Assembly: GCF_051622035.1 (NCBI RefSeq)
Contig: NC_135356.1
Span: 32,036,109-32,100,108 of the forward strand
Direction of reading: 5' to 3'
From: Arctopsyche grandis
Taxonomy: Eukaryota; Arthropoda; Insecta; Trichoptera; Hydropsychidae
Length of the DNA: 64,000 nt
Positions within the stretch are counted from its first letter, which is position 1, and every line of letters starts with the position of its first letter. The notes beneath the pieces are model-generated. The model was not told where the DNA came from and ran no database searches. It worked only from the letters and a program-made list of their open reading frames with translations. Positions 6,594 through 47,360 of this stretch are shown piece by piece. A program made the position numbers and the translations under genes.

Positions 6594-7113
6594 CATTCAG
6601 GGAATAGTCATTTTTCAAGATTTTTATTTTTTAATTAACTTATGCTTATCTTGGTTTAGAACAAGTGGTCAACGGCTAGTAGAAATACTACATTTTTTGG
6701 TCATTTGAATGTAAATACTTCATTAACCGGTTGACTGGCCAGACTTTCAGGAATTAATTTAAGGGTTAAAGAGGTAATCATATAATTTTAAAATTATTTT
6801 TTCCATTACAGGTTCAAAATTTATTACTTTTTACATACCAAAATTCATTAACCTCCCGGAAAAGTCATTCAAGTGGGTTACAGGTGTTATCATCCATTCG
6901 GTGGCTTGCAATATCATTGCATAAACTAAAAAATAAAATTTATTGGTTTTTAGCTTATGCATTCATATATAATTTTATATTTATATTTTTTCAAAAAATG
7001 TATACATATGTATGTACATACCCTACAAAGCAAGAGGGCAAAAAGATGGTTGACAATAGTGAACCATTTTTTGTGCACAACGCTATAGTGTTTCGTCTAA
7101 CAAAAATGGTTCG
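6594..7113. other. AT-rich spacer without a gene
   Basis: Contains TACATATGTATGTACATA-type microsatellite and small overlapping frames only. It ends at the 8-bp TSD GTGATTAC (7114-7121) of the next element. Confidence 0.35.
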
Positions 7114-7205
7114 GTGATTACTAGTCACCGGACCCAAAAGGTGCCGCGTATTGTTCAAAGATTGTAAATGCATTGTTAAAGGTTTGCCGAACCTTTTTTA
7201 CAAAG

Positions 7206-8253
7206 TGTAGGCGGGGTACGATGTGTTGACCGTATCCCGGCCTAACGAAACACTGTTGTGTGGTTCAAAGATGGGGTCACCAATGTAGGCGGGGTAGCGA
7301 TGTGTGTTGACAGCGCTGTTGGATGATCAGAAGGTTGCGTAGATCACGTCGGATTAGTACCAATGTAGGCGGGTTACATGTGTGTTGACCGTATCCCGGC
7401 CTAACGAAACACTGTTGTGCTAGTTTTATAAAGTTTTATTGTTTGCCTATGGTTGTACAAAGGTATGGTATTTGTGGGCAAAAGTATGTCGTTCAGCGGT
7501 CTCTGGATATGGTAGAGTGTCGCTGGCTCAGCATTCAGCTATGTACGGAAGGTCTCTGGATACGGCAGTGTGTTGCTGGCTCGTCCGGCTGGTTGATCTT
7601 CCAAGTCCGCGTAGTGTAGTGGTGGCTGGTCAGGAGCTGTATGTTGACTGGTCTGCTGCTGTGTGTCGACGCTTGCTGCTCTGGGTCGACTGGTCTGGTG
7701 CTGTGTGTCGACGCTTGCTGTTGTGGGTCGACTGGTCTGGTGCTGTGTGTCGACGCTTGCTGTTGTGGGTCGACTGGCGTGGTTTGGGTTGTACCTCCTT
7801 TTATAGTGTTTTTGGAATGCTTGGTGGAAGTGGTTATTGACGCGTACGAGAGGAATTTTGTTTTCGTCGAGGCGTCGAATTTTCTGGAATGCTTGATGGA
7901 AGTGGTCGTACGAGCATTTAGTTTATTGATGCGTACGAAAGGAATTTTGTTTTCGTCGAGGCGTCGAATTTTCTGGAATGCTTGATGGAAGTGGTTATTG
8001 ACGCGTACGAGAGGAATTTTGTTTTCGTCGAGGCGTCGAATTTTCTGGAATGCTGGGCGGTGTTCCGCTCGATGTAGTTTAATGGTGGCGGCGTGTTTCG
8101 ACCGGTTTGGTTCCACTCGACTGGTAGGGGCGTTCCGCCTGAGTTTAATATAACGACTGCAGGTGCATATCGTCTGGGTTTCGGGAATGTAGTTTGTTGT
8201 TGCGGAATATTCTCGAAGGTTTCGATGACGATGACGACGACGAGATTCCTACA
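7206..8253 (-). repeat. LTR copy (3' LTR in element orientation)
   Basis: Ends TGTAGGCGGG and ATTCCTACA. It holds GTCGACGC-containing subrepeats of about 42 bp at 7650-7775, and two to three copies of a block ending GGCGTCGAATTTTCTGGAATGC at 7840-8060. The side nearest 7206 carries two internal copies of the LTR-end/primer-site junction. Confidence 0.88.
7325..7362 (+). other. degenerate tRNA-Trp 3' half embedded in the LTR
   Basis: The stretch reads GATCAGAAGGTTGCGT, then ATCACGTCGG, then ACCA, which follows the 3' half of animal tRNA-Trp from the anticodon arm to the CCA end, with about six T-loop bases lost and the acceptor arm degraded. The CCA is followed after one base by TGTAGGCGGG, exactly as a primer site abuts an LTR. 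It is a relic of a copied primer, not a tRNA gene: there is no 5' half. The same relic recurs at +2774 and +5548. The identity rests on my recollection of the conserved tRNA-Trp sequence. Confidence 0.75.
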
Positions 8254-9979
8254 TGGCTCTCCGGTGAGTGTTAACGATGTGTGTGATTTTGTGGGAATCT
8301 TGATGTGTTGGAGTCTATTGACTCGATGGCGTCGTTGTTTGTCCGGTTGTGCTGGAGAAAGTTGTCTCGACAGCGGGTCTTGTGTTGCATGCCGGTCCAA
8401 GTCTTGTTCTCTACCAGGTTGCTTATTTTGGGCGAGCTGCGTTGGTAGTGAAGGTTTGCGATGGCTTGGATGGTGCTGTTGTGCAGGCTGCTGTGTTCTG
8501 CGTGGAGTCATTCGCGTGACTGTTTTGCTGGTTGTGCTGGAGTTAGTTGTCTCGGCAGCGGGTCTTGCGTGAAGAACGTTGGTTGACGAAGTGCGTTGAG
8601 TGCTGGTCTTCGTTGGTTGTGCTGGAGTTAGTTGTCTCGACAGCGGATCTTGCGTGAAGAACGTTGGTTGACGAAGTGCGTTGAGTGCTGGTCTTCGTTG
8701 GTTGTGCTGGAGTTAGTTGTCTCGACAGCGGATCTTGCGTGAAGAACGTTGGTTGACGAAGTGCGTTGAGTGCTGGTCTTCGTTGGTTGTGCTGGAGTTA
8801 GTTGTCTCGGCAGCGGGTCTTGCGTGAAGAACGTTGGTTGACGAAGTGCGTTGAGTGCTGATCTTCGTTGGTTGTGCTGGAGTTAGTTGTCTCGACAGCG
8901 GGTCTTGCGTGAAGAACGTTGTTTGACGAAGTGCGTTGAGTGCTGGTCTTCGTTGGTTGTGCTGGAGTTAGTTGTCTCGACAGCGGATCTTGCGTGAAGA
9001 ACGTTGGTTGACGAAGTGCGTTGAGTGCTGGTCTTCGTTGGTTGTGCTGGAGTTAGTTGTCTCGACAGCGGGATTTGTGTGGAGACTGTTGGTTAGCGAA
9101 GTACGTTGAGTGCTGGTCTTCGTTGGTTGTGCTGGAGTCGGTTGTCTCGACAGCGGGTCTCGTTTTGCGTACCAGTCCGAGTTGTTCTTTTCTACCATGT
9201 TGCTTATTCTGTCTAGGCTACGTTGATAGTGAAGGTTGGTGGTCTGGACGATGTTGTTGTGCAGGCGTTGTGCTGATTGTGCTGGAGTTAGTTGTCTCGA
9301 CAGCGGCTGTGTTGTGTTGGAGCTAGTTGGCTCAGTGGCGATTTGTTTCGCCGGTTGTGCTGGAGTGGGTTGACTCAACAGCGGGTTGTGTTGGTAGCTG
9401 GTCCATATGTACTTTCACACCATGTTACTGTTGCGGTCGTTACAATGGTAGTGAAGGTTTGTGACGGTCTGGACGGTGCTGTTGTGCAGGCTGCGGCGTC
9501 CTGCATGGGCTCATCGAGGTGATGAATCATCGAAGGTGTGATGAGCGGTGCTGGCGGATCAACAGTAGTGGATCCATTTGGTTGTTGTCTCCGGGTTGCG
9601 TTTTGTTGTGGCGAAAGCTGCGGAGTTGTTTGACATGGTCACTAGTTGTGGGGACATGTAGCGGACTGCGTTTGAAGTCTGCGTTGAGGGTTGCGTTGTA
9701 GACTGCGTTGAAGGCTGCGGTTGCGTGAAGTCTGCGGTTGCTATGTAGGCTGCTATGTAGGCTGCGATGTGGGCTGCTATGTAGGCTGCGATGTGGGCTG
9801 CTATGTAGGCTGCAATGTGGGCTGCTATGTGGGCTGCGATGTAGGCTGCTATGTAGGCTGCGCTGTGGGCTGCTGTCGTGGCGGCTGTTGGTTGTTGTGG
9901 AGGCTGCACTGTGGGCTGCCGTGTTGACTGCGCTGTTGACTGCTATGAAGGCTGCGTAGTTCAAAGATGGGGTCACCAA
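8254..9979 (-). repeat. internal region copy 1 of the LTR element
   Basis: This 1,726-bp region carries no retroviral-type protein. Most of it is tandem sequence: about seven copies of an 85-bp unit containing GAGTTAGTTGTCTCGACAGC between 8540 and 9130, and a 12-bp unit (CTATGTAGGCTG/CGATGTGGGCTG) at 9735-9880. Open frames on both strands encode only Gln/Thr/Pro or Cys/Gly/Leu repeats and are by-products. A short GTTCAAAGATGGGGTCACCA block ends it next to the LTR. Confidence 0.8.
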
Positions 9980-11027
9980 TGTAGGCGGGGTACGATGTGT
10001 TGACCGTATCCCGGCCTAACGAAACACTGTTGTGTGGTTCAAAGATGGGGTCACCAATGTAGGCGGGGTAGCGATGTGTGTTGACAGCGCTGTTGGATGA
10101 TCAGAAGGTTGCGTAGATCACGTCGGATTAGTACCAATGTAGGCGGGTTACATGTGTGTTGACCGTATCCCGGCCTAACGAAACACTGTTGTGCTAGTTT
10201 TATAAAGTTTTATTGTTTGCCTATGGTTGTACAAAGGTATGGTATTTGTGGGCAAAAGTATGTCGTTCAGCGGTCTCTGGATATGGTAGAGTGTCGCTGG
10301 CTCAGCATTCAGCTATGTACGGAAGGTCTCTGGATACGGCAGTGTGTTGCTGGCTCGTCCGGCTGGTTGATCTTCCAAGTCCGCGTAGTGTAGTGGTGGC
10401 TGGTCAGGAGCTGTATGTTGACTGGTCTGCTGCTGTGTGTCGACGCTTGCTGCTCTGGGTCGACTGGTCTGGTGCTGTGTGTCGACGCTTGCTGTTGTGG
10501 GTCGACTGGTCTGGTGCTGTGTGTCGACGCTTGCTGTTGTGGGTCGACTGGCGTGGTTTGGGTTGTACCTCCTTTTATAGTGTTTTTGGAATGCTTGGTG
10601 GAAGTGGTTATTGACGCGTACGAGAGGAATTTTGTTTTCGTCGAGGCGTCGAATTTTCTGGAATGCTTGATGGAAGTGGTCGTACGAGCATTTAGTTTAT
10701 TGATGCGTACGAAAGGAATTTTGTTTTCGTCGAGGCGTCGAATTTTCTGGAATGCTTGATGGAAGTGGTTATTGACGCGTACGAGAGGAATTTTGTTTTC
10801 GTCGAGGCGTCGAATTTTCTGGAATGCTGGGCGGTGTTCCGCTCGATGTAGTTTAATGGTGGCGGCGTGTTTCGACCGGTTTGGTTCCACTCGACTGGTA
10901 GGGGCGTTCCGCCTGAGTTTAATATAACGACTGCAGGTGCATATCGTCTGGGTTTCGGGAATGTAGTTTGTTGTTGCGGAATATTCTCGAAGGTTTCGAT
11001 GACGATGACGACGACGAGATTCCTACA
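9980..11027 (-). repeat. central LTR shared by the two tandem units
   Basis: Same ends and apparently the same sequence as the outer LTRs, offset by exactly 2,774 bp. A shared central LTR is expected from unequal recombination between LTRs or from a tandem product of reverse transcription. Confidence 0.88.
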
Positions 11028-12753
11028 TGGCTCTCCGGTGAGTGTTAACGATGTGTGTGATTTTGTGGGAATCTTGATGTGTTGGAGTCTATTGACTCGA
11101 TGGCGTCGTTGTTTGTCCGGTTGTGCTGGAGAAAGTTGTCTCGACAGCGGGTCTTGTGTTGCATGCCGGTCCAAGTCTTGTTCTCTACCAGGTTGCTTAT
11201 TTTGGGCGAGCTGCGTTGGTAGTGAAGGTTTGCGATGGCTTGGATGGTGCTGTTGTGCAGGCTGCTGTGTTCTGCGTGGAGTCATTCGCGTGACTGTTTT
11301 GCTGGTTGTGCTGGAGTTAGTTGTCTCGGCAGCGGGTCTTGCGTGAAGAACGTTGGTTGACGAAGTGCGTTGAGTGCTGGTCTTCGTTGGTTGTGCTGGA
11401 GTTAGTTGTCTCGACAGCGGATCTTGCGTGAAGAACGTTGGTTGACGAAGTGCGTTGAGTGCTGGTCTTCGTTGGTTGTGCTGGAGTTAGTTGTCTCGAC
11501 AGCGGATCTTGCGTGAAGAACGTTGGTTGACGAAGTGCGTTGAGTGCTGGTCTTCGTTGGTTGTGCTGGAGTTAGTTGTCTCGGCAGCGGGTCTTGCGTG
11601 AAGAACGTTGGTTGACGAAGTGCGTTGAGTGCTGATCTTCGTTGGTTGTGCTGGAGTTAGTTGTCTCGACAGCGGGTCTTGCGTGAAGAACGTTGTTTGA
11701 CGAAGTGCGTTGAGTGCTGGTCTTCGTTGGTTGTGCTGGAGTTAGTTGTCTCGACAGCGGATCTTGCGTGAAGAACGTTGGTTGACGAAGTGCGTTGAGT
11801 GCTGGTCTTCGTTGGTTGTGCTGGAGTTAGTTGTCTCGACAGCGGGATTTGTGTGGAGACTGTTGGTTAGCGAAGTACGTTGAGTGCTGGTCTTCGTTGG
11901 TTGTGCTGGAGTCGGTTGTCTCGACAGCGGGTCTCGTTTTGCGTACCAGTCCGAGTTGTTCTTTTCTACCATGTTGCTTATTCTGTCTAGGCTACGTTGA
12001 TAGTGAAGGTTGGTGGTCTGGACGATGTTGTTGTGCAGGCGTTGTGCTGATTGTGCTGGAGTTAGTTGTCTCGACAGCGGCTGTGTTGTGTTGGAGCTAG
12101 TTGGCTCAGTGGCGATTTGTTTCGCCGGTTGTGCTGGAGTGGGTTGACTCAACAGCGGGTTGTGTTGGTAGCTGGTCCATATGTACTTTCACACCATGTT
12201 ACTGTTGCGGTCGTTACAATGGTAGTGAAGGTTTGTGACGGTCTGGACGGTGCTGTTGTGCAGGCTGCGGCGTCCTGCATGGGCTCATCGAGGTGATGAA
12301 TCATCGAAGGTGTGATGAGCGGTGCTGGCGGATCAACAGTAGTGGATCCATTTGGTTGTTGTCTCCGGGTTGCGTTTTGTTGTGGCGAAAGCTGCGGAGT
12401 TGTTTGACATGGTCACTAGTTGTGGGGACATGTAGCGGACTGCGTTTGAAGTCTGCGTTGAGGGTTGCGTTGTAGACTGCGTTGAAGGCTGCGGTTGCGT
12501 GAAGTCTGCGGTTGCTATGTAGGCTGCTATGTAGGCTGCGATGTGGGCTGCTATGTAGGCTGCGATGTGGGCTGCTATGTAGGCTGCAATGTGGGCTGCT
12601 ATGTGGGCTGCGATGTAGGCTGCTATGTAGGCTGCGCTGTGGGCTGCTGTCGTGGCGGCTGTTGGTTGTTGTGGAGGCTGCACTGTGGGCTGCCGTGTTG
12701 ACTGCGCTGTTGACTGCTATGAAGGCTGCGTAGTTCAAAGATGGGGTCACCAA
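11028..12753 (-). repeat. internal region copy 2 of the LTR element
   Basis: Apparently identical to 8254-9979 at an offset of 2,774 bp, including all 85-bp and 12-bp subrepeats. Confidence 0.85.
12743..12752 (-). promoter_or_regulatory. primer-binding site, tRNA-Trp type
   Basis: GGGGTCACCA on the plus strand is the 3' end of tRNA-Trp including CCA. Read on the minus strand it follows the 5' LTR by one base, the usual place for the primer site. It continues with GTTCAAA, also found in the tRNA T loop, but with the intervening bases missing. The equivalent at 9969-9978 follows the central LTR. Confidence 0.72.
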
Positions 12754-13801
12754 TGTAGGCGGGGTACGATGTGTTGACCGTATCCCGGCCTAACGAAACA
12801 CTGTTGTGTGGTTCAAAGATGGGGTCACCAATGTAGGCGGGGTAGCGATGTGTGTTGACAGCGCTGTTGGATGATCAGAAGGTTGCGTAGATCACGTCGG
12901 ATTAGTACCAATGTAGGCGGGTTACATGTGTGTTGACCGTATCCCGGCCTAACGAAACACTGTTGTGCTAGTTTTATAAAGTTTTATTGTTTGCCTATGG
13001 TTGTACAAAGGTATGGTATTTGTGGGCAAAAGTATGTCGTTCAGCGGTCTCTGGATATGGTAGAGTGTCGCTGGCTCAGCATTCAGCTATGTACGGAAGG
13101 TCTCTGGATACGGCAGTGTGTTGCTGGCTCGTCCGGCTGGTTGATCTTCCAAGTCCGCGTAGTGTAGTGGTGGCTGGTCAGGAGCTGTATGTTGACTGGT
13201 CTGCTGCTGTGTGTCGACGCTTGCTGCTCTGGGTCGACTGGTCTGGTGCTGTGTGTCGACGCTTGCTGTTGTGGGTCGACTGGTCTGGTGCTGTGTGTCG
13301 ACGCTTGCTGTTGTGGGTCGACTGGCGTGGTTTGGGTTGTACCTCCTTTTATAGTGTTTTTGGAATGCTTGGTGGAAGTGGTTATTGACGCGTACGAGAG
13401 GAATTTTGTTTTCGTCGAGGCGTCGAATTTTCTGGAATGCTTGATGGAAGTGGTCGTACGAGCATTTAGTTTATTGATGCGTACGAAAGGAATTTTGTTT
13501 TCGTCGAGGCGTCGAATTTTCTGGAATGCTTGATGGAAGTGGTTATTGACGCGTACGAGAGGAATTTTGTTTTCGTCGAGGCGTCGAATTTTCTGGAATG
13601 CTGGGCGGTGTTCCGCTCGATGTAGTTTAATGGTGGCGGCGTGTTTCGACCGGTTTGGTTCCACTCGACTGGTAGGGGCGTTCCGCCTGAGTTTAATATA
13701 ACGACTGCAGGTGCATATCGTCTGGGTTTCGGGAATGTAGTTTGTTGTTGCGGAATATTCTCGAAGGTTTCGATGACGATGACGACGACGAGATTCCTAC
13801 A
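12754..13801 (-). repeat. LTR copy (5' LTR in element orientation)
   Basis: Third LTR. Its outer end at 13801 has CCTACA followed by the AAAG target duplication and then the second half of the MITE. Confidence 0.88.
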
Positions 13802-13860
13802 AAAGGATTTACAGAAATGGAACAATGGATAGCACTGTGACTATCCTACCTCTAGTGATT

Positions 13861-14112
13861 ACTAGTCAAATGTGAACCGGTCGCTCTAGATCGGTCACAC
13901 GTGATCACCCGTCACACTAAAACTGGTCACGAGAAAACTAGTCACACCCGAAAATTGGTCACACTCAAAAATTCGACCATTTTTTTATTTGTGTGTGTGA
14001 CCAGTTTTTTTGTGACCAATTTTCGGTGTGACCTGTTTTCTCGTGACCAGTTTTAGGGTGACGGGTGATCACGTGTGACCGATCTAGAGCGACCGGTTCA
14101 CATTTGACTAGT
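13861..14112. repeat. foldback MITE with GGTCAC-rich arms
   Basis: Starts ACTAGTCAAATGTGAACCGG and ends with its reverse complement; the two arms are near-perfect over more than 100 bp around a short T-rich centre. The arms contain repeated GGTCAC/GTGACC words spaced by AAAACT. One related arm lies at 18703-18865. Confidence 0.85.
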
Positions 14113-14270
14113 AGTCCGTTTACCAACAAAAATAGCCACATAATATTTCGAAGGGCATGAATTGAAATTTACTGAAAATCGCACTAGCGAGTGACAGCTG
14201 TCAGCTGGTAAGGTCGAGACAGCTGTCATTGTTCTAGTCATCTTTTGTAGTGGTTTTACTCGCGTTCGAA

Positions 14271-18444: not shown

Positions 18445-18690
18445 TCATGTTTTTTAATGTAAAATTATTAATATGTGCATAGATTAGTCTGATTTTCCCG
18501 TTTCTCATTAATTTCCGATTTTTGATTTTTACTTTAACTATGTATGTATGTAGTAACAATAGATGAAGTTTTGTGATCATGCGAAAATTCGAACTCGAGA
18601 TTTTGACTGATTCGAACTCAGAATCGATTACTGATCACGTTTTCATGATCTAGAAAAAATGTGTGTCTGTGTATTTTGGGGATTTTTTGA
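18445..18690. repeat. dispersed repeat pieces
   Basis: 18445-18530 repeats 18045-18125 (ATGTTTTTTAATGTA...ATTAGTCTGATTTTCCCG). 18536-18690 is a reverse-complement relative of 53010-53170, sharing GATCACGTTTTCATGATCTA. Confidence 0.7.
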
Positions 18691-18702
18691 ACGGTAAACG
18701 GA

Positions 18703-18865
18703 CTACTAGTCAAATGTGAACCGGTCACAGGACAACCGGTCGCTCGTGAACATCCGTCACGCTAAAACTGGTCACGATAAAACTGGTCACACGCTAAAAC
18801 TGGTCACAAGAAAACTGGTGACGAGAAAACTGGTCACACCCAAAAATTAAAAATTGGTCACACAA
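18703..18865. repeat. single arm of the GGTCAC foldback family
   Basis: Begins CTACTAGTCAAATGTGAACC like the 13861 foldback and continues through repeated AAAACTGGTCAC units, but has no matching second arm nearby. A short coding-looking stretch on the minus strand at 18858-19058 is not recognised. Confidence 0.7.
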
Positions 18866-38636: not shown

Positions 38637-41128
38637 TTACATTATATTAAAAAAATATTTAAATAAAATAGATTTCATGTTATATTTACTAACAATGAAT
38701 AAATCGACCATGGACAATTCGTTTCCAACTCTGTGCAGTCTCAACATAGCTGAGTTCAATGAGTAATTAGTGGTAAACCTGGGCATATCAAAAAGATGGT
38801 TACATCTAATTGATCTACCCGGCACATGGAAGCACACTAAACTCACCAAGTCAGAGCATTTAATAGTGCCATTAAGAAGACCACACAGAACTGAAATATC
38901 GTTAATTTTCCTTCTGTCATATAATTTTAGCAAATTAAGTTTCCTATAAATAATAACGTTACTGACATAATGATTATGACTTTTAAAAAATTTAAATTTA
39001 ATGAATCTAATGAACTTTATTTGCACTGACTCTATTATGTTAATTTGTTTCATTAAATAAGGAGACCAAATGATAGAATTGTACTCTAATTGGTTTCTAA
39101 CCAGAGTGGTGTATAAAATTTTAATCGTATTTACATTTTTGAAGTGAGTACTATTTCTTATTAAGAAACCAAGTGTTTTGATGGCATTTTTTGTGATAAA
39201 ATTTATATGAGAATTAAAAGTTAATTTGTCGTCAAAAATAACTCCTAGATCTTTAATTAGCGATGATGATGGTAATGATTCATTATTTATATGATAATTA
39301 TAAATAATTTTGTTATTTGACCTACTGAACCTGACAACAGAACACTTCTTAATGTTTAAATATAATTTATTAAAAGAACACCAATCGTTTAATGAGTTTA
39401 AATTAGTTTGTAAAGTAGCACAATCGTTAGTGTCTTTTATGCATTTAAATATTTTTAAATCGTCTGCAAATAAGAGCACTTTAACATCATTAAATATATT
39501 TATAATATCATTTATAAAAATATTGAATAGGACTGGTCCCATGTGAGATCCTTGGGGAACGCCACTAGTTGGATTAAAGGAGTAAGATTTAGAATGGCCG
39601 ATTTTAACTAATAATGATCTATTGGACAAATAGCTCCGAAACCAGTTTAGTAATACACCGCTGATTCCGATACTGTTTAGTTTATATAATAAAATCTCAA
39701 TATCAACTTTGTCAAATGCTTTACTGAAATCAGTGTAAATTGAGTCAACTTGCAATTTAACAGATAAGGCACTAGAAATAAAATTTTCATATAATAATAA
39801 ATTGGATAAGGTAGATCTACCAGAAGTAAAACCATGTTGTTGTGGAATAATAATGTTATTAATGAAAGGAATAAATTCGTCTAATACTAAACTTTCAAAA
39901 AGTTTTGGAATAGTTGATAGTTGACAGATGGCTCTATAGTTCATTACATTATGTTTATCCCCATTTTTATGGAGAGGCATTAAATAGCCAGACTTCCAAG
40001 AATTGGGAAATATACCAGTGGAAATAGATTGATAAAAGAGATTAAAAAGAGGATAAGTTAATACATTGGCACAATTCTTGATAAAAATTGGGGGTATGTT
40101 GTCAGGACCCGCAGATTTAGATATATCTAAGGCATTTATTTTGTTAATCAATTTTTGAATAGATATATTTATAGAATGTAAAGGTGAAATCAGGACATTA
40201 TTATTTACAATGCTATAATTAGAATTATTGTTGTTGTTTTTGACATAGATCGATTTGAAAAAATCAGCAAAAAGATTGACTGAATCATTAGTATTGTCAA
40301 CAAATTTACCGTTAAATTGAATGTTTTCTGGTATATATGTTTTATTGCTGTTTAATTCTTTAGTAAATGACCAAAAATATTTGGAATTTGAATCAATGAA
40401 TGATTCTGTTTTTTTAATATAAAGTTTAAAACATTTGGATATATGTAGTTTACACAAAGCTCTTAGTTTTTTGAATTCAATATATATGTGTGTAGAGTTA
40501 TAAATTTTGAATAATTTGTGCACACTTTTTTTTTTATGTATTAGGTTTTTTAATTCGGGACTAAACCATTTTGGAAAAAAATGCAACTTATTTTTATATT
40601 GAGGAACATGGTTGTATATACAAGAGATTAATAATTCATTCAGCATAATGACTTTTGATTCAAAGTTAATGTTATCGTTTAAGAACGACCAATTAGTGAC
40701 ATTTAATTGGTTCATGATTTCGTTATAATCGGCTCTGTGAAAATCAAAAATATTTTGCTGAATTAAAGGTAGATTAGTAGATTTATTTAAAGTAATAATA
40801 ATATCTAGGGGTGGATGATGGCCATCCACTGGAGATAGAACATCATGAGATTTCATAACGTTAGTGTTTTTGAAATTGGAAAAAACTAAATCTAAGACAC
40901 GATCATTCAAGTTGGAAATAGTATTAAATTGTTTAAGACCTAAATTTAAAGATAAATTTATAATTTCTTGATGAATTGGAGAATTTTCATTCATTTCAAG
41001 GTTTTGCCAGTCCAAATTTGGTAGATTAAAATCACCAGTTATTAAGAATTTTGAATCAGGATATTTTAATCTGATTGTTTCAATATCTAATCTATAATTT
41101 GGAAAGAGACTTTGTATGTATGTAAATA
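38637..41128 (-). CDS. LINE ORF2: rest of endonuclease and reverse transcriptase
   Basis: About 830 LINE codons. Endonuclease part: FLITGDFNLPNLDW, LNDRVLDLVFSN and SPVDGHHPPLD (the SDH-type motif). RT part: KSAGPDNIPPIF, NYRAICQLSTIPKLFESLV, QHGFTSGRSTLSNLL, DFSKAFDKV, SGVPQGSHMGPVLFN and LLFADDLKIF with both catalytic Asp residues. The C-terminal region has NQLEYNSIIWSPYL. The first 30 or so codons of the open frame, including an Arg run from a GTC repeat, come from the inserted sequence and are not LINE. Confidence 0.92.
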
Positions 41129-41269
41129 TCCTTGGTCGTCGTCGTCGTCGTCGTCTTCGTCCGTAGATCGGTGACGTCATCGAACACGTGATTCGATTTT
41201 TTTTTTTTCGATCCATGGGCGCCGATTTGTTTTTTTCGTTTCAATGGATTCACCCCCGCGGGGGCGCAA

Positions 41270-43136
41270 GGCGAGTAGCTTCATGGGGCCCCGCCAGGGG
41301 CGCCACAAGGGGCGCAGCCCCGTGGGGCCCCAGCCTCATGGGGCCCAGCCCCATGGGGCTCAAAAGGGGGCGCCACAAGGGGCGCAGTCCCATGGGGCTC
41401 AAAAGGGGGCGCCACGAGGGGCGCAGCCCCGTGGGGCCCCGGGGGGGCCCAGCCTCATGGGGCTCAAAAGGGGGCGCCACAAGGGGCGCAGCCCCGTGGG
41501 GCCCAGCCTCATGGGGCGCAGCCCCATGGGGCTCAAAAGGGGGCGCCACAAGGGACGCAGCCCCGTGGGGCCCCGAAGGGGGCCCGGGGGGCCCAGCCTC
41601 ATGGGGCGCAGCCCCATGGGGCTCAAAAGGGGGCGCCACAAGGGGCGCAGTCCCATGGGGCTCAAAAGGGGGCGCCACGAGGGGCGCAGCCCCGTGGGGC
41701 CCCGGGGGGGCCCAGCCTCATGGGGCTCAAAAGGGGGCGCCACAAGGGGCGCAGCCCCGTGGGGCCCAGCCTCATGGGGCGCAGCCCCATGGGGCTCAAA
41801 AGGGGGCGCCACAAGGGACGCAGCCCCGTGGGGCCCCGAAGGGGGCCCGGGGGGCCCAGCCTCATGGGGCGCAGCCCCATGGGGCTCAAAAGGGGGCGCC
41901 ACAAGGGGCGCAGCCCCGTGGGGCCCCGGGGGGGCCCAGCCTCATGGGGCGCAGCCCCATGGGGCTCAAAAGGGGGCGCCACATGGGGCGCAGCCCCGTG
42001 GGGCCCCGAAGGGGGCCCGGGGGGCCCAGCCTCATGGGGCGCAGCCCCATGGGGCTCAAAAGGGGGCGCCACAAGGGGCGCAGTCCCATGGGGCTCAAAA
42101 GGGGGCGCCACGAGGGGCGCAGCCCCGTGGGGCCCCGGGGGGGCCCAGCCTCATGGGGCTCAAAAGGGGGCGCCACAAGGGGCGCAGCCCCGTGGGGCCC
42201 CGAAGGGGGCCCGGGGGGCCCAGCCTCATGGGGCGCAGCCCCATGGGGCTCAAAAGGGGGCGCCACAAGGGACGCAGCCCCGTGGGGCCCCGAAGGGGGC
42301 CCGGGGGGCCCAGCCTCATGGGGCGCAGCCCCATGGGGCTCAAAAGGGGGCGCCACAAGGGGCGCAGCCCCGTGGGGCCCCGGGGGGGCCCAGCCTCATG
42401 GGGCGCAGCCCCATGGGGCTCAAAAGGGGGCGCCACATGGGGCGCAGCCCCGTGGGGCCCCGAAGGGGGCCCGGGGGGCCCAGCCTCATGGGGCGCAGCC
42501 CCATGGGGCTCAAAAGGGGGCGCCACAAGGGGCGCAGTCCCATGGGGCTCAAAAGGGGGCGCCACGAGGGGCGCAGCCCCGTGGGGCCCCGGGGGGGCCC
42601 AGCCTCATGGGGCTCAAAAGGGGGCGCCACAAGGGGCGCAGCCCCGTGGGGCCCCGAAGGGGGCCCGGGGGGCCCAGCCTCATGGGGCGCAGCCCCATGG
42701 GGCTCAAAAGGGGGCGCCACAAGGGACGCAGCCCCGTGGGGCCCCGAAGGGGGCCCGGGGGGCCCAGCCTCATGGGGCGCAGCCCCATGGGGCTCAAAAG
42801 GGGGCGCCACAAGGGGCGCAGCCCCGTGGGGCCCCGGGGGGGCCCAGCCTCATGGGGCGCAGCCCCATGGGGCTCAAAAGGGGGCGCCACATGGGGCGCA
42901 GCCCCGTGGGGCCCCGAAGGGGGCCCGGGGGGCCCAGCCTCATGGGGCGCAGCCCCATGGGGCTCAAAAGGGGGCGCCACAAGGGGCGCAGCCCCGTGGG
43001 GCCCCGAATGGGGGCCCGGGGGGCCCAGCCTCATGGGGCGCAGCCCCATGGGGCTCAAAAGGGGGCGCCACAAGGGGCGCAGCCCCGTGGGGCCCTGAAG
43101 GGGGCCCGGGGGGCCCAGCCTCATGGGGCGCAAGCC
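41270..43136. repeat. GC-rich minisatellite with 454-bp higher-order repeat
   Basis: About 1.87 kb of units such as GGGGCGCAGCCCCATGGGG, CTCAAAAGGGGGCGCC and GGGGCCCCGAAGGGGGCCCG. Unit variants recur with a 454-bp period: 41886-42356 and 42340-42810 encode the same peptide on the minus strand. As 454 is not a multiple of 3 and the units lack stops, several frames stay open for up to 636 codons; none is a gene. Confidence 0.88.
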
Positions 43137-43650
43137 CTAATAGGCATTAACTAAGGGGGGCGAAGCCCTAGACGGCAATTAATCATGGGGGCGCGGAGGG
43201 GCGAAGCCCTAAAAGGCAACTGATCATGGGGGCGAAGCCTTAGACGGCATTTAATCATGGGGGCGCGGAGGGGCGAAGCCCTAAAAGGCATTAACTAAGG
43301 GGGGCGAAGCCCTAAACGGCAACTGATCATGGGGGCGAAGCCTTAGACGGCATTTAATCATGGGGGCGCGGAGGGGCGAAGCCCTAAAAGGCATTAACTA
43401 AGGGGGGCGAAGCCCTAAACGGCAATTAATCTTGGGGGCGCGGGGGGCGAAGCCCTAAAAGGCATTAACTTAGGGGGGCGAAGCCCTAGACGGCTTTTAA
43501 TCATGGGGGCGCGGAGGGGCGAAGCCCTAAAAGGCAACTGATCATGGGGGCGAAGCCCTAAACGGCAATTGCTCATGGGGCGTGGAGGGGCGAAGCCCTA
43601 GAAGGCAAAGGCTCAGGGGGGCGCCGAGGGCGAAGCCCTAGAAGGCAAAA
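43137..43650. repeat. second minisatellite, GGGGCGAAGCCCTA type
   Basis: Units GGCATTAACTAAGGGGGGCG, AAGCCCTAAACGGC and GATCATGGGGGCGAAGCC alternate imperfectly. It is related to the first array by the GGGGCGAAGCCC core but richer in A+T. Confidence 0.8.
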
Positions 43651-45458: not shown

Positions 45459-45668
45459 AATTTCATTAGTTTGTGACCGAATGAACGAGAGTGACGTTAA
45501 CCGAACGTTAAATAAATTTTAAAATAATAAGACACTGTCGTTATCAAGTAGCTTATGCTTCTAATGTATAATAACAATTACTATTAACAATTAATTAATT
45601 TCTTTAATATACTTTAAAAATAGTTTACGTATAGGGTTAATGTGTTTTGTTATAGGGTATTTGTTACG

Positions 45669-47360
45669 ATGTCATCAAAAAGAAAACATAGCCCCTTGTG
45701 GACTCATTTTACAGAAGACATTGATAATAAAAAAGCGAAATGTAACCATTGTTCAACAATAATAAGTATTGCGGGCGGATCGAATGGTAATTTAACCCGA
45801 CATATGAAAACAAAACACCTTTTGATCCCATTAACTGCTGAAAGACAAACACCGATATTACCTAGTTTAAACTCACTTCAATCAAGTCAAAGCACATGCG
45901 AATCGGAGAATATAATTTCAGCATCATCAAATATAGTAGACTCCCAACAATCGATGACCCAATACATTCGTAGACCACCGCCAGTTCCAAAGATTGAGCA
46001 AATTGATAAACAACTTGTCAAGATGGTAGCTAAAGGGCATCACGCCTTAAGAATCGTAGAAGAAACAGAATTTCGTAAACTTATTGAATTAGTTTCTCAA
46101 TGCCCAGGCTATAAACTACCATCAAGAAAAACGTTATCGGAAAATTTAATGTCAAGAATTCACAATGACGTCATGGCTGAAGCAAAAATAAAGGTACAAG
46201 CAGCACCAGCGTTGTCTCTTAGTACTGATGGTTGGACGTCTAGAAATAACGACAGCTATATAGCTATTGTAGCTCATTTTATAAATGAAGAGACTAAACT
46301 TCACTCAGTATTACTTGGTTGTATCAATTATAAAGAGCGACATACTAGTCAAAACTTGTGCGACTTTATGAAAGTTGTTATGGCGGAGTGGAACATTTCA
46401 CACACAGTTGCTGCCATTGTTAGCGATAATGCAGCAAATATCTTATCTGCTGTTAGACTTGGTGATTGGCGGTCCATCTCATGTTTCGCTCACTCTCTAA
46501 ATCTTGTTGTACAAGAAGCTACGAAAAAGATATGTGACGTTTTGGGAAGAGTTAAAAATATTGTCGAGTTTTTTATTCGTAGCACACAAGGAAAACATAA
46601 ATTGACTGCTACGCAGCAGCAAATGAATTTGCCTGTTCTTAAGCTCAAGCAGGATGTACAAACCTGCTGGAATTCCACTTTTGACATGCTCAAGCGAATA
46701 GTACAGGTAAAGGATGCAGTGATTGCTACCGTTGCACTTCTACGCCCTGATTTAACTTTAAATGAAGGGGACTGGGAAGTCATAGAGGAAGTTTTACCGT
46801 TACTCAGTCCATTCTACGAGATTACCTTAGAAATAAGTGCCGAGAAAAACGTCACTTTATCTAAAATAATAATTTTGTGTAATTTACTAACAAATTTTTT
46901 ACAAAAACATGTTTCTTACAATACAAAAATAGTTGATGTGCAGTCTCTGCTAAAGAAAGGCATGGAAGATCGTTTAAAAGATATAGAGAAGAATATGTTA
47001 TACGCAGAGTGTACGATTTTGGATCCTCGATTTAAGACGAGGGGATTCAAAAATCAAAGAGCCTGTGAAATGGTAGTACAAGCCCTTAGAAATAAAATCG
47101 GCCAAGTACAATTAGTTCAAGGGGGTACTCCAGAGGCTGTTCCTACTTCCAGCGACGCATCAACATCTATACCTAGTAATAAAAATAGCTGCATATGGGA
47201 TGAATACGACCAAGAAATACAAAAAATTACTAGGCCAGATAACCAGCTTGCTGCTGGCATTCGCGAATTAGATAAATACCTAAATGAAGAGTATCTAAAT
47301 CGTAAAGAAGATCCGCTTCAATGGTGGCATGAACGTCGTTTGATATACGTCGTCGTTTGA
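45669..47360 (+). CDS. BED-finger hAT transposase, C-terminally truncated
   Basis: I chose the Met at 45669 (MSSKRKHSPLWTHF), the usual start before a BED finger; the frame is also open to 45642. Numbering from 45642: BED zinc finger CNHC (34-37) with HMKTKH (54-59); catalytic-core motifs LSTDGWTSR (first Asp about 196) and IVSDNAAN (second Asp about 262); CFAHSLNL (281-288) and QTCWNSTFDML (340-350). The frame then reaches DPLQWWHERR and ends YVVV, where hAT proteins continue into the dimerisation block with SERxFS. That block, where family knowledge places the third acid, is missing because the sequence switches at about 47350 to the oxidase-pseudogene duplicate. Probably inactive, though the open part is undamaged. 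Confidence 0.92.
   Translation: MSSKRKHSPLWTHFTEDIDNKKAKCNHCSTIISIAGGSNGNLTRHMKTKHLLIPLTAERQTPILPSLNSLQSSQSTCESENIISASSNIVDSQQSMTQYIRRPPPVPKIEQIDKQLVKMVAKGHHALRIVEETEFRKLIELVSQCPGYKLPSRKTLSENLMSRIHNDVMAEAKIKVQAAPALSLSTDGWTSRNNDSYIAIVAHFINEETKLHSVLLGCINYKERHTSQNLCDFMKVVMAEWNISHTVAAIVSDNAANILSAVRLGDWRSISCFAHSLNLVVQEATKKICDVLGRVKNIVEFFIRSTQGKHKLTATQQQMNLPVLKLKQDVQTCWNSTFDMLKRIVQVKDAVIATVALLRPDLTLNEGDWEVIEEVLPLLSPFYEITLEISAEKNVTLSKIIILCNLLTNFLQKHVSYNTKIVDVQSLLKKGMEDRLKDIEKNMLYAECTILDPRFKTRGFKNQRACEMVVQALRNKIGQVQLVQGGTPEAVPTSSDASTSIPSNKNSCIWDEYDQEIQKITRPDNQLAAGIRELDKYLNEEYLNRKEDPLQWWHERRLIYVVV

What the first reader, a model, noticed from the sequence alone, without database searches (positions are those of the whole stretch)
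7206..13801. LTR-int-LTR-int-LTR tandem retrotransposon with its own TSD
What looks like a 2.38-copy satellite resolves exactly into three 1,048-bp LTRs and two 1,726-bp internal regions (3x1048 + 2x1726 = 6,596). The outer ends are TGTAGG/CCTACA and the 4-bp TSD AAAG is present. Tandem elements sharing an LTR are rarely seen in full, and here the copies appear identical, so the event or its homogenisation is recent. The internal region has no retroviral proteins, so this is an unusual non-autonomous element family.
Basis: seen in the sequence. Interest (0 to 1): 0.88.

Follow-up and report, generated by a model that had tools for sequence, protein, structure and literature searches.

The report
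Doubled retrotransposon sharing its middle LTR
In a caddisfly chromosome, an apparently young retrotransposon without recognisable protein genes sits as two identical copies that share their middle end-repeat, likely made by misaligned recombination after it inserted; a second such locus in the same genome shows that this is a recurring and fairly ordinary kind of event.

Summary
7206-13801 is three identical 1,048-bp LTRs alternating with two identical 1,726-bp internal regions, ends TGTAGG/CCTACA, TSD AAAG. It belongs to a real LTR element family: 29 of 29 insertions with both ends (2 tandems, 14 singles, 13 solo LTRs) carry 4-bp TSDs. A second tandem, with its own TSD (AGTG) and another LTR subtype, lies at C8:21.29 Mb: 2 tandems among 97 listed loci. 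(1) The sense strand is likely the window's minus strand: a deleted relative keeps the end of a Ty3/Gypsy-like integrase on that strand, next to the LTR, and a stretch beside a 1,128-aa pol frame matches about 60% of the window LTR in the same orientation. (2) The presumed primer-binding site resembles the 3' half of tRNA-Trp (recalled sequence); two similar copies lie inside the LTR end. (3) Tandem LTR elements are already called common in plants (PMC11899658). Likely origin: unequal LTR-LTR recombination within one insertion; a tandem cDNA is not excluded. The host is taken as Arctopsyche grandis.

The parts
7202..7205 (.). target site duplication AAAG, left copy
7206..8253 (-). LTR A (3' LTR in the likely sense orientation), 1,048 bp
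   Evidence: 0 differences to the others; sense strand inferred from relatives
7255..7282 (-). tRNA-Trp-like / PBS-like copy inside the LTR end (first 78-bp unit 7206-7283)
7325..7352 (-). second tRNA-Trp-like copy inside the LTR end (unit 7284-7363)
8254..9979 (-). internal region A, 1,726 bp, no Pfam match in the open frames tested
8254..8264 (-). presumed PPT side of the internal region (sense CCGGAGAGCCA next to TGTAGG); not a canonical purine tract
   Evidence: sequence; the 17-mer with the LTR end occurs 150 times in the genome
8529..9160 (-). 85-bp minisatellite, 7.4 copies
9739..9956 (-). 12/24-bp minisatellite
9947..9978 (-). presumed primer-binding site with extended tRNA-Trp similarity (sense TGGTGACCCC...), one base from the LTR
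9980..11027 (-). LTR B, shared by both units
11028..12753 (-). internal region B, identical to A
12754..13801 (-). LTR C (5' LTR in the likely sense orientation)
13802..13805 (.). target site duplication AAAG, right copy

Best explanation
The stretch, flanked by a single 4-bp target duplication, is an LTR retrotransposon without recognisable coding sequence, likely Ty3/Gypsy-derived, that likely grew from one unit to two by unequal recombination between its own left and right LTRs on paired sister chromatids or homologues. Shown: three identical LTRs, two identical internal regions, one TSD, single and solo relatives with 4-bp TSDs, and a second tandem of another subtype. Inferred: an element transcribed from the minus strand is reverse transcribed by a Gypsy element's enzymes with a tRNA-Trp primer, integrates as LTR-int-LTR, and afterwards an exchange between the LTRs of misaligned copies leaves LTR-int-LTR-int-LTR on one chromatid and a solo LTR on the other.
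For: One TSD pair and no internal TSD, so the two units do not come from two separate insertions. The two internal regions agree over all 1,726 bases; of the 39 loci found with the internal region, only L009 on C9 also matches at 100% over the full length, so both units likely come from one parent. LTR-LTR recombination appears frequent: of the first 100 of 639 LTR ends, 40 belong to neither end of an element with a listed internal junction, and 13 of 28 insertions classified are solo LTRs with TSDs. A second tandem of another subtype has its own TSD AGTG and 0 differences over 3,082 bp. Ty3/Gypsy relation: L049 has an open frame on the sense strand that matches 27 proteins at E <= 0.001 among 31 candidates; three of them are named as integrase, gag-pol or Tf2-type (that Tf2 is Ty3/Gypsy is recalled). 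Six matches of its homologue P0001 at 90% identity lie in 1,128-aa open frames. The stretch beside one of these (L077) matches the window LTR at sense positions 32-64 and 200-798 in pieces of 84-99% identity, same orientation.
Against: No allele, read or population data show the single-unit or solo state at this site. Because all copies are identical, no crossover point can be seen. A tandem cDNA integrated in one step would leave the same DNA. The number of 85-bp core motifs (11 in each window unit) is no help: L009, L015, L018, L020 and L025 also have 11. Pfam sees the L049 frame only below its cut-off (E 0.15), and in the PDB foamy virus integrase (E 0.2) ranks no better than unrelated chains; the assignment rests. 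That L077 is the LTR of the neighbouring pol frame is inferred, and it lacks TGTAGG/CCTACA. Rfam found no tRNA in 9880-10180. The tract next to the LTR is not a clean polypurine tract.
Confidence: 0.55

Rival explanations
1. A tandem cDNA with a shared LTR was made before integration (recombination or template switching between co-packaged RNAs, or transcription around a one-LTR circle) and inserted in a single step.
For: Predicts exactly one TSD and identical units, as seen in both tandems. The rice authors suggest a single insertion for their two detailed loci (PMC11899658 abstract; section 8) and name one-LTR circles as a possible source (section 13). The family's reverse transcription looks irregular: L009 carries an extra exact 78-bp unit on one side only, and the number of LTR units runs from 1 to 5.
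Against: Abundant solo LTRs already show the recombination that the simpler model needs. Both tandems have exactly two units.
Confidence: 0.25
2. A one-LTR circle or free cDNA recombined by homology into an LTR of an element already at this site.
For: Same end product. Integrase-independent integration into preexisting elements is cited for yeast in PMC11899658 (section 3). An identical single element exists elsewhere (L009) and could have been the donor.
Against: The added unit would often come from another copy, yet of the 39 loci only L009 has an internal region identical to the window's; the tandem in L035 is likewise made of two identical units of its own subtype.
Confidence: 0.1
3. The second unit is an assembly duplication of a single element.
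For: The units are perfectly identical, and reads were not available.
Against: 189 contigs for 475.7 Mb suggest a long-read assembly, in which a 6.6-kb array is easily spanned (inference); the array ends exactly at LTR boundaries and the same form recurs at an unlinked locus with other sequence.
Confidence: 0.1

Closest known systems
Tandem LTR-retrotransposons of rice and other plants (PMC11899658; abstract and sections 3, 8, 13 read)
   Same: LTR-int-LTR-int-LTR sharing inner LTRs, one TSD around the whole array, origin undecided between recombination and tandem insertion
   Different: Insect host; both tandems here are identical inside (the first rice locus had 94% internal and 85-89% LTR identity); no recognisable coding sequence
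TRIM elements such as PbTRIM of the harvester ant (PMC3532108, passages read) and Cassandra tandem arrays (PMC7215508, passages read)
   Same: Non-coding internal region, PBS, 4-bp TSD and abundant solo LTRs in PbTRIM; tandem arrays in Cassandra
   Different: Here singles with equal LTRs are 3.2-4.6 kb (one with unequal LTRs 2.4 kb), with LTRs of 0.8-1.2 kb; PbTRIM is 480-781 bp with a tRNA-Leu PBS
Helenus (PMC10886601; abstract and sections 13, 16 read)
   Same: [quoted passage not shown] tRNA-Trp is among the primers named for wasp Helenus and for Gypsy-32_NVi
   Different: The longest Helenus there is 1,263 bp, and its tRNA-like part is not complementary to the PBS; here the LTR copies resemble the PBS region itself
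Ogre/Tat retrotransposons with tandem repeats (PMC7004042, passages read)
   Same: Minisatellites inside an LTR element
   Different: Ogre is a coding plant Ty3/gypsy element, and its arrays lie in the 3' untranslated region

Membership tests
LTR retrotransposon | direct LTRs with TG..CA ends | tested here: met
   28 of 28 insertions with both ends, (fragments and truncated L034 left out)
LTR retrotransposon | constant-length target site duplication at different sites | tested here: met
   4 bp in 28 of 28, plus L035
LTR retrotransposon | tRNA-complementary PBS next to the 5' LTR | tested here: inconclusive
LTR retrotransposon | polypurine tract next to the 3' LTR | tested here: inconclusive
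   sense CCGGAGAGCCA abuts the LTR; only partly purine
Ty3/Gypsy lineage | Gypsy-like integrase/pol in relatives that share LTR sequence, same orientation | tested here: met
   L049, L077; shown for relatives, not for the window element, which has no pol match
Non-autonomous element | no gag-pol coding | tested here: met
   0 Pfam families for 8 open frames at E <= 0.1; tblastn of P0001 hits L049 alone among the window and L001-L076
TRIM | very small size | tested here: not met
   10 singles are 3,215-4,641 bp
Tandem LTR-retrotransposon | units sharing an LTR inside one TSD | tested here: met
Helenus | tRNA-like promoter region in the LTR of a small element (longest reported 1,263 bp) | tested here: not met
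   tRNA-Trp-like pieces are present, but they resemble the element's own PBS region, and size differs; promoter activity not testable here

The most novel reading that the evidence does not exclude
The LTR grows and shrinks by swallowing its own primer-binding site: U5 carries a row of units of about 78 bp that carry copies of the PBS and tRNA-Trp, so reverse transcription can start at different units, and the same misplaced priming on read-through RNA also makes the shared-LTR tandems, which would be replication products and not recombinants.
Probability: 0.12. Interest if true: 0.7.

Novelty: new member of a known kind. Interest (0 to 1): 0.4.

Why it matters
It gives a clean animal case, with two apparently young tandems, single elements and solo LTRs in one genome, in which the open question of how shared-LTR tandems arise (recombination after insertion or tandem insertion) could be settled by genotyping the sites in other individuals. 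The PBS-like units inside the LTR, with one copy (L009) that has an extra unit on one side, may also let one read from sequence where reverse transcription started.

Tried and rejected
Rejected: satellite DNA (the array ends exactly at LTR ends with a TSD); two adjacent insertions (no inner TSD); homogenisation (single elements are just as uniform). My own first reading of strand (PBS at TGGCTCTCCGG, purine tract at AAAGATGGGG; the early notes and the labels 'PBS' and 'PPT' still use it) was dropped when L049 showed integrase on the other strand. C6:23667636/23672859 looked like a third tandem but is a 5,223-bp segmental duplication near a JHBP-like exon. The variable minisatellite number as a sign of common parentage was dropped on recount: other elements also have 11 motifs. 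Rfam and ARAGORN found nothing in the window; Rfam gave no tRNA at the PBS. No match in the plasmid collection. Bacterial-type promoter scan of the LTR: nothing useful.

Not finished: requests for RF00005, PF05380, the left flank (window 6905-7205), a tRNA-Trp pattern, the longer junction pattern and the L049 protein did not complete; 50 of the 150 junctions were not listed; 20 of the 60 junctions still unread were not fetched; one scored LTR locus (C5:31989795) was not fetched. No empty-site test was made. LTR fragments in L017, L022, L026 and L027 and the truncated element L019/L034 were left out of the counts.

Full report
What is there. The window lies in G000:C2:32036109-32100108, a 475.7-Mb genome in 189 contigs. 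The best protein match to a relative of the element, P0001, is named from Arctopsyche grandis on a contig of 39,475,857 bp, which is the length of C2, and it occurs at 100% identity in this genome; the host is therefore taken to be this caddisfly (taxonomy).

The family. The LTR finds 88 matches from the 40 candidates scored out of 1,364, and the internal region finds 39 distinct loci from 40 scored of 198. I fetched 26 stretches, 24 distinct places. Of 28 insertions with both ends, 28 have TGTAGG..CCTACA and 28 have a 4-bp TSD: the window tandem, 14 single elements, 13 solo LTRs. One truncated element (L019/L034) and LTR fragments seen in four stretches were left out. The places were picked by similarity to the window LTR and are not a random sample. 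Among 12 singles with LTRs of equal length, 10 pairs are identical and 2 differ by one base; two singles have LTRs of unequal length. L009 on C9 is identical to the window over LTR, internal region and LTR, apart from an extra 78 bp. The sampled copies are therefore young, and identity between the tandem's units is no sign of homogenisation.

Copy numbers. A 17-mer across the LTR-internal junction (up to 1 mismatch) occurs 150 times, the reversed control 0 times. The LTR's terminal 24-mer occurs 639 times, control 0. Of the first 100 LTR ends listed, 32 carry the internal junction, 28 are their partners and 40 are neither; that most of these 40 are solo LTRs is inferred.

Other tandems. Of the 100 junctions listed (of 150), three same-strand pairs lie within 6 kb: the window, C8:21296873/21299062 and C6:23667636/23672859. 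The C8 pair is a second tandem: LTR 893, int 1,296, LTR 893, int 1,296, LTR 893, in all 5,271 bp, all copies identical, TSD AGTG; its LTR differs from the window's at 27 of 893 aligned bases, not counting gaps. The C6 pair is a segmental duplication near a JHBP-like exon. Counting each pair once gives 97 loci, 2 of them tandems; most of the 97 were judged by spacing only.

Strand and lineage. Of 60 listed junction loci not yet fetched or matched, 40 were read for about 700 bp; 38 are at least 94% covered by the known internal region, L064 75%, and L049 0%. On the opposite strand L049 has an open frame that runs into the LTR. Pfam and PDB see an integrase there only below threshold, but 27 of 31 candidate proteins match at E <= 0.001; most are unnamed or uncharacterised, three are named as integrase, gag-pol or Tf2-type, and one comes from a Streptococcus record. 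P0001, at 94% identity, extends upstream with further integrase-like sequence (my reading). In the genome P0001 gives 150 scored matches of 380 candidates; six of them, at 90% identity, lie in 1,128-aa open frames. The 1.3 kb at the end of one of these (L077) matches the window LTR at sense positions 32-64 and 200-798, about 60% of it, in the same orientation, in pieces of 84-99% identity, but without TGTAGG or CCTACA. So the window element is likely read on the minus strand and has Gypsy relatives that may be autonomous; that L077 is the LTR of that pol frame, and that such an element supplies the enzymes, is inferred.

Primer site. In sense orientation the LTR is followed by TTGGTGACCCCATCTTTGAAC. 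The end of the internal region aligns with the 3' half of tRNA-Trp, CCA included, and two of three units inside the LTR end align too (0 of 2000 mononucleotide shuffles each; the third unit does not, 1756 of 2000). The tRNA sequence was recalled, so this is a lead and not a proof. Gypsy-32_NVi and some hymenopteran Helenus families with tRNA-Trp primers are in print (PMC10886601, section 16). L009's extra 78 bp is an exact copy of the first unit, between 5' LTR and internal region in sense orientation, which is what priming at the PBS copy nearer the LTR would leave (inference). L028 has 5 units, L029b and L030b have 1.

Inside. The 85-bp core motif is found 6 to 20 times among 15 internal regions, and 11 times in both window units and in L009, L015, L018, L020 and L025. 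No Pfam family in 8 open frames.

Origin of the tandem. Both tandems have one TSD and identical units. Solo LTRs show that LTR-LTR recombination is common here, so unequal exchange is the economical account; the reciprocal product would be a solo LTR. Insertion of a tandem cDNA gives the same DNA. The rice study leaves the two open as well (PMC11899658, section 13).

Known or new. Shared-LTR tandems are described as common in plants, and the same paper mentions them for kangaroo centromeres and tandem insertions for Drosophila (PMC11899658, sections 3 and 13). The element itself is a new member of the non-autonomous LTR elements, larger than a TRIM. One paper search with the terms Arctopsyche grandis, genome, transposable element (two of three, listing only) showed 8 of 31,538 papers, one of which names the species once; the literature was not searched further for this family, so no claim is made that it is unpublished.

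Noticed in passing
L036 (G000:C6:23665800-23675700): Tandem segmental duplication with a 5,223-bp period, identical over the 2,496 bp in view, beside a JHBP-like gene exon and carrying a fragment of this element.
   Followed up: partly
G000:C2:16440595-16519986: Integrase matches spaced exactly 39,375 bp (16440595, 16479970, 16519345), and LTR ends with the same spacing (16455739, 16495114): likely a large near-identical tandem duplication containing Gypsy elements.
   Followed up: no
G000:C188, C41 and C2:26974-122390: Repeated Gypsy-like integrase matches, often 7.4-7.8 kb apart on C188 and C41 and 17-21 kb apart at the start of C2; possibly arrays of another Gypsy family.
   Followed up: no
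G000:C3:24125213-24130351: Three same-strand LTR ends within 5.2 kb but only one listed internal junction; could be an element beside a solo LTR or another complex form; not read.
   Followed up: no
window 13857-14145 and 18672-18859: Inverted and subterminal repeats about 4.5-4.8 kb apart (I13, I15, I18, and the local pair I4) that look like the ends of a DNA transposon, beginning about 50 bp beside the tandem element.
   Followed up: no
window 41319-43623: G+C-rich compound tandem array (periods 39, 90, 454; then 71-143) just beside a LINE-like reverse transcriptase frame at 38637-41240.
   Followed up: no
window 45624-47360: Open frame of 578 aa with a BED zinc finger and a sub-threshold DUF659 match, possibly a hAT-type transposase.
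   Followed up: no
L030 4550-6976: A short single element with one LTR unit and LTRs of unequal length (757 and 388 bp) inside one TSD, so one LTR has a deletion or the other a gain.
   Followed up: no
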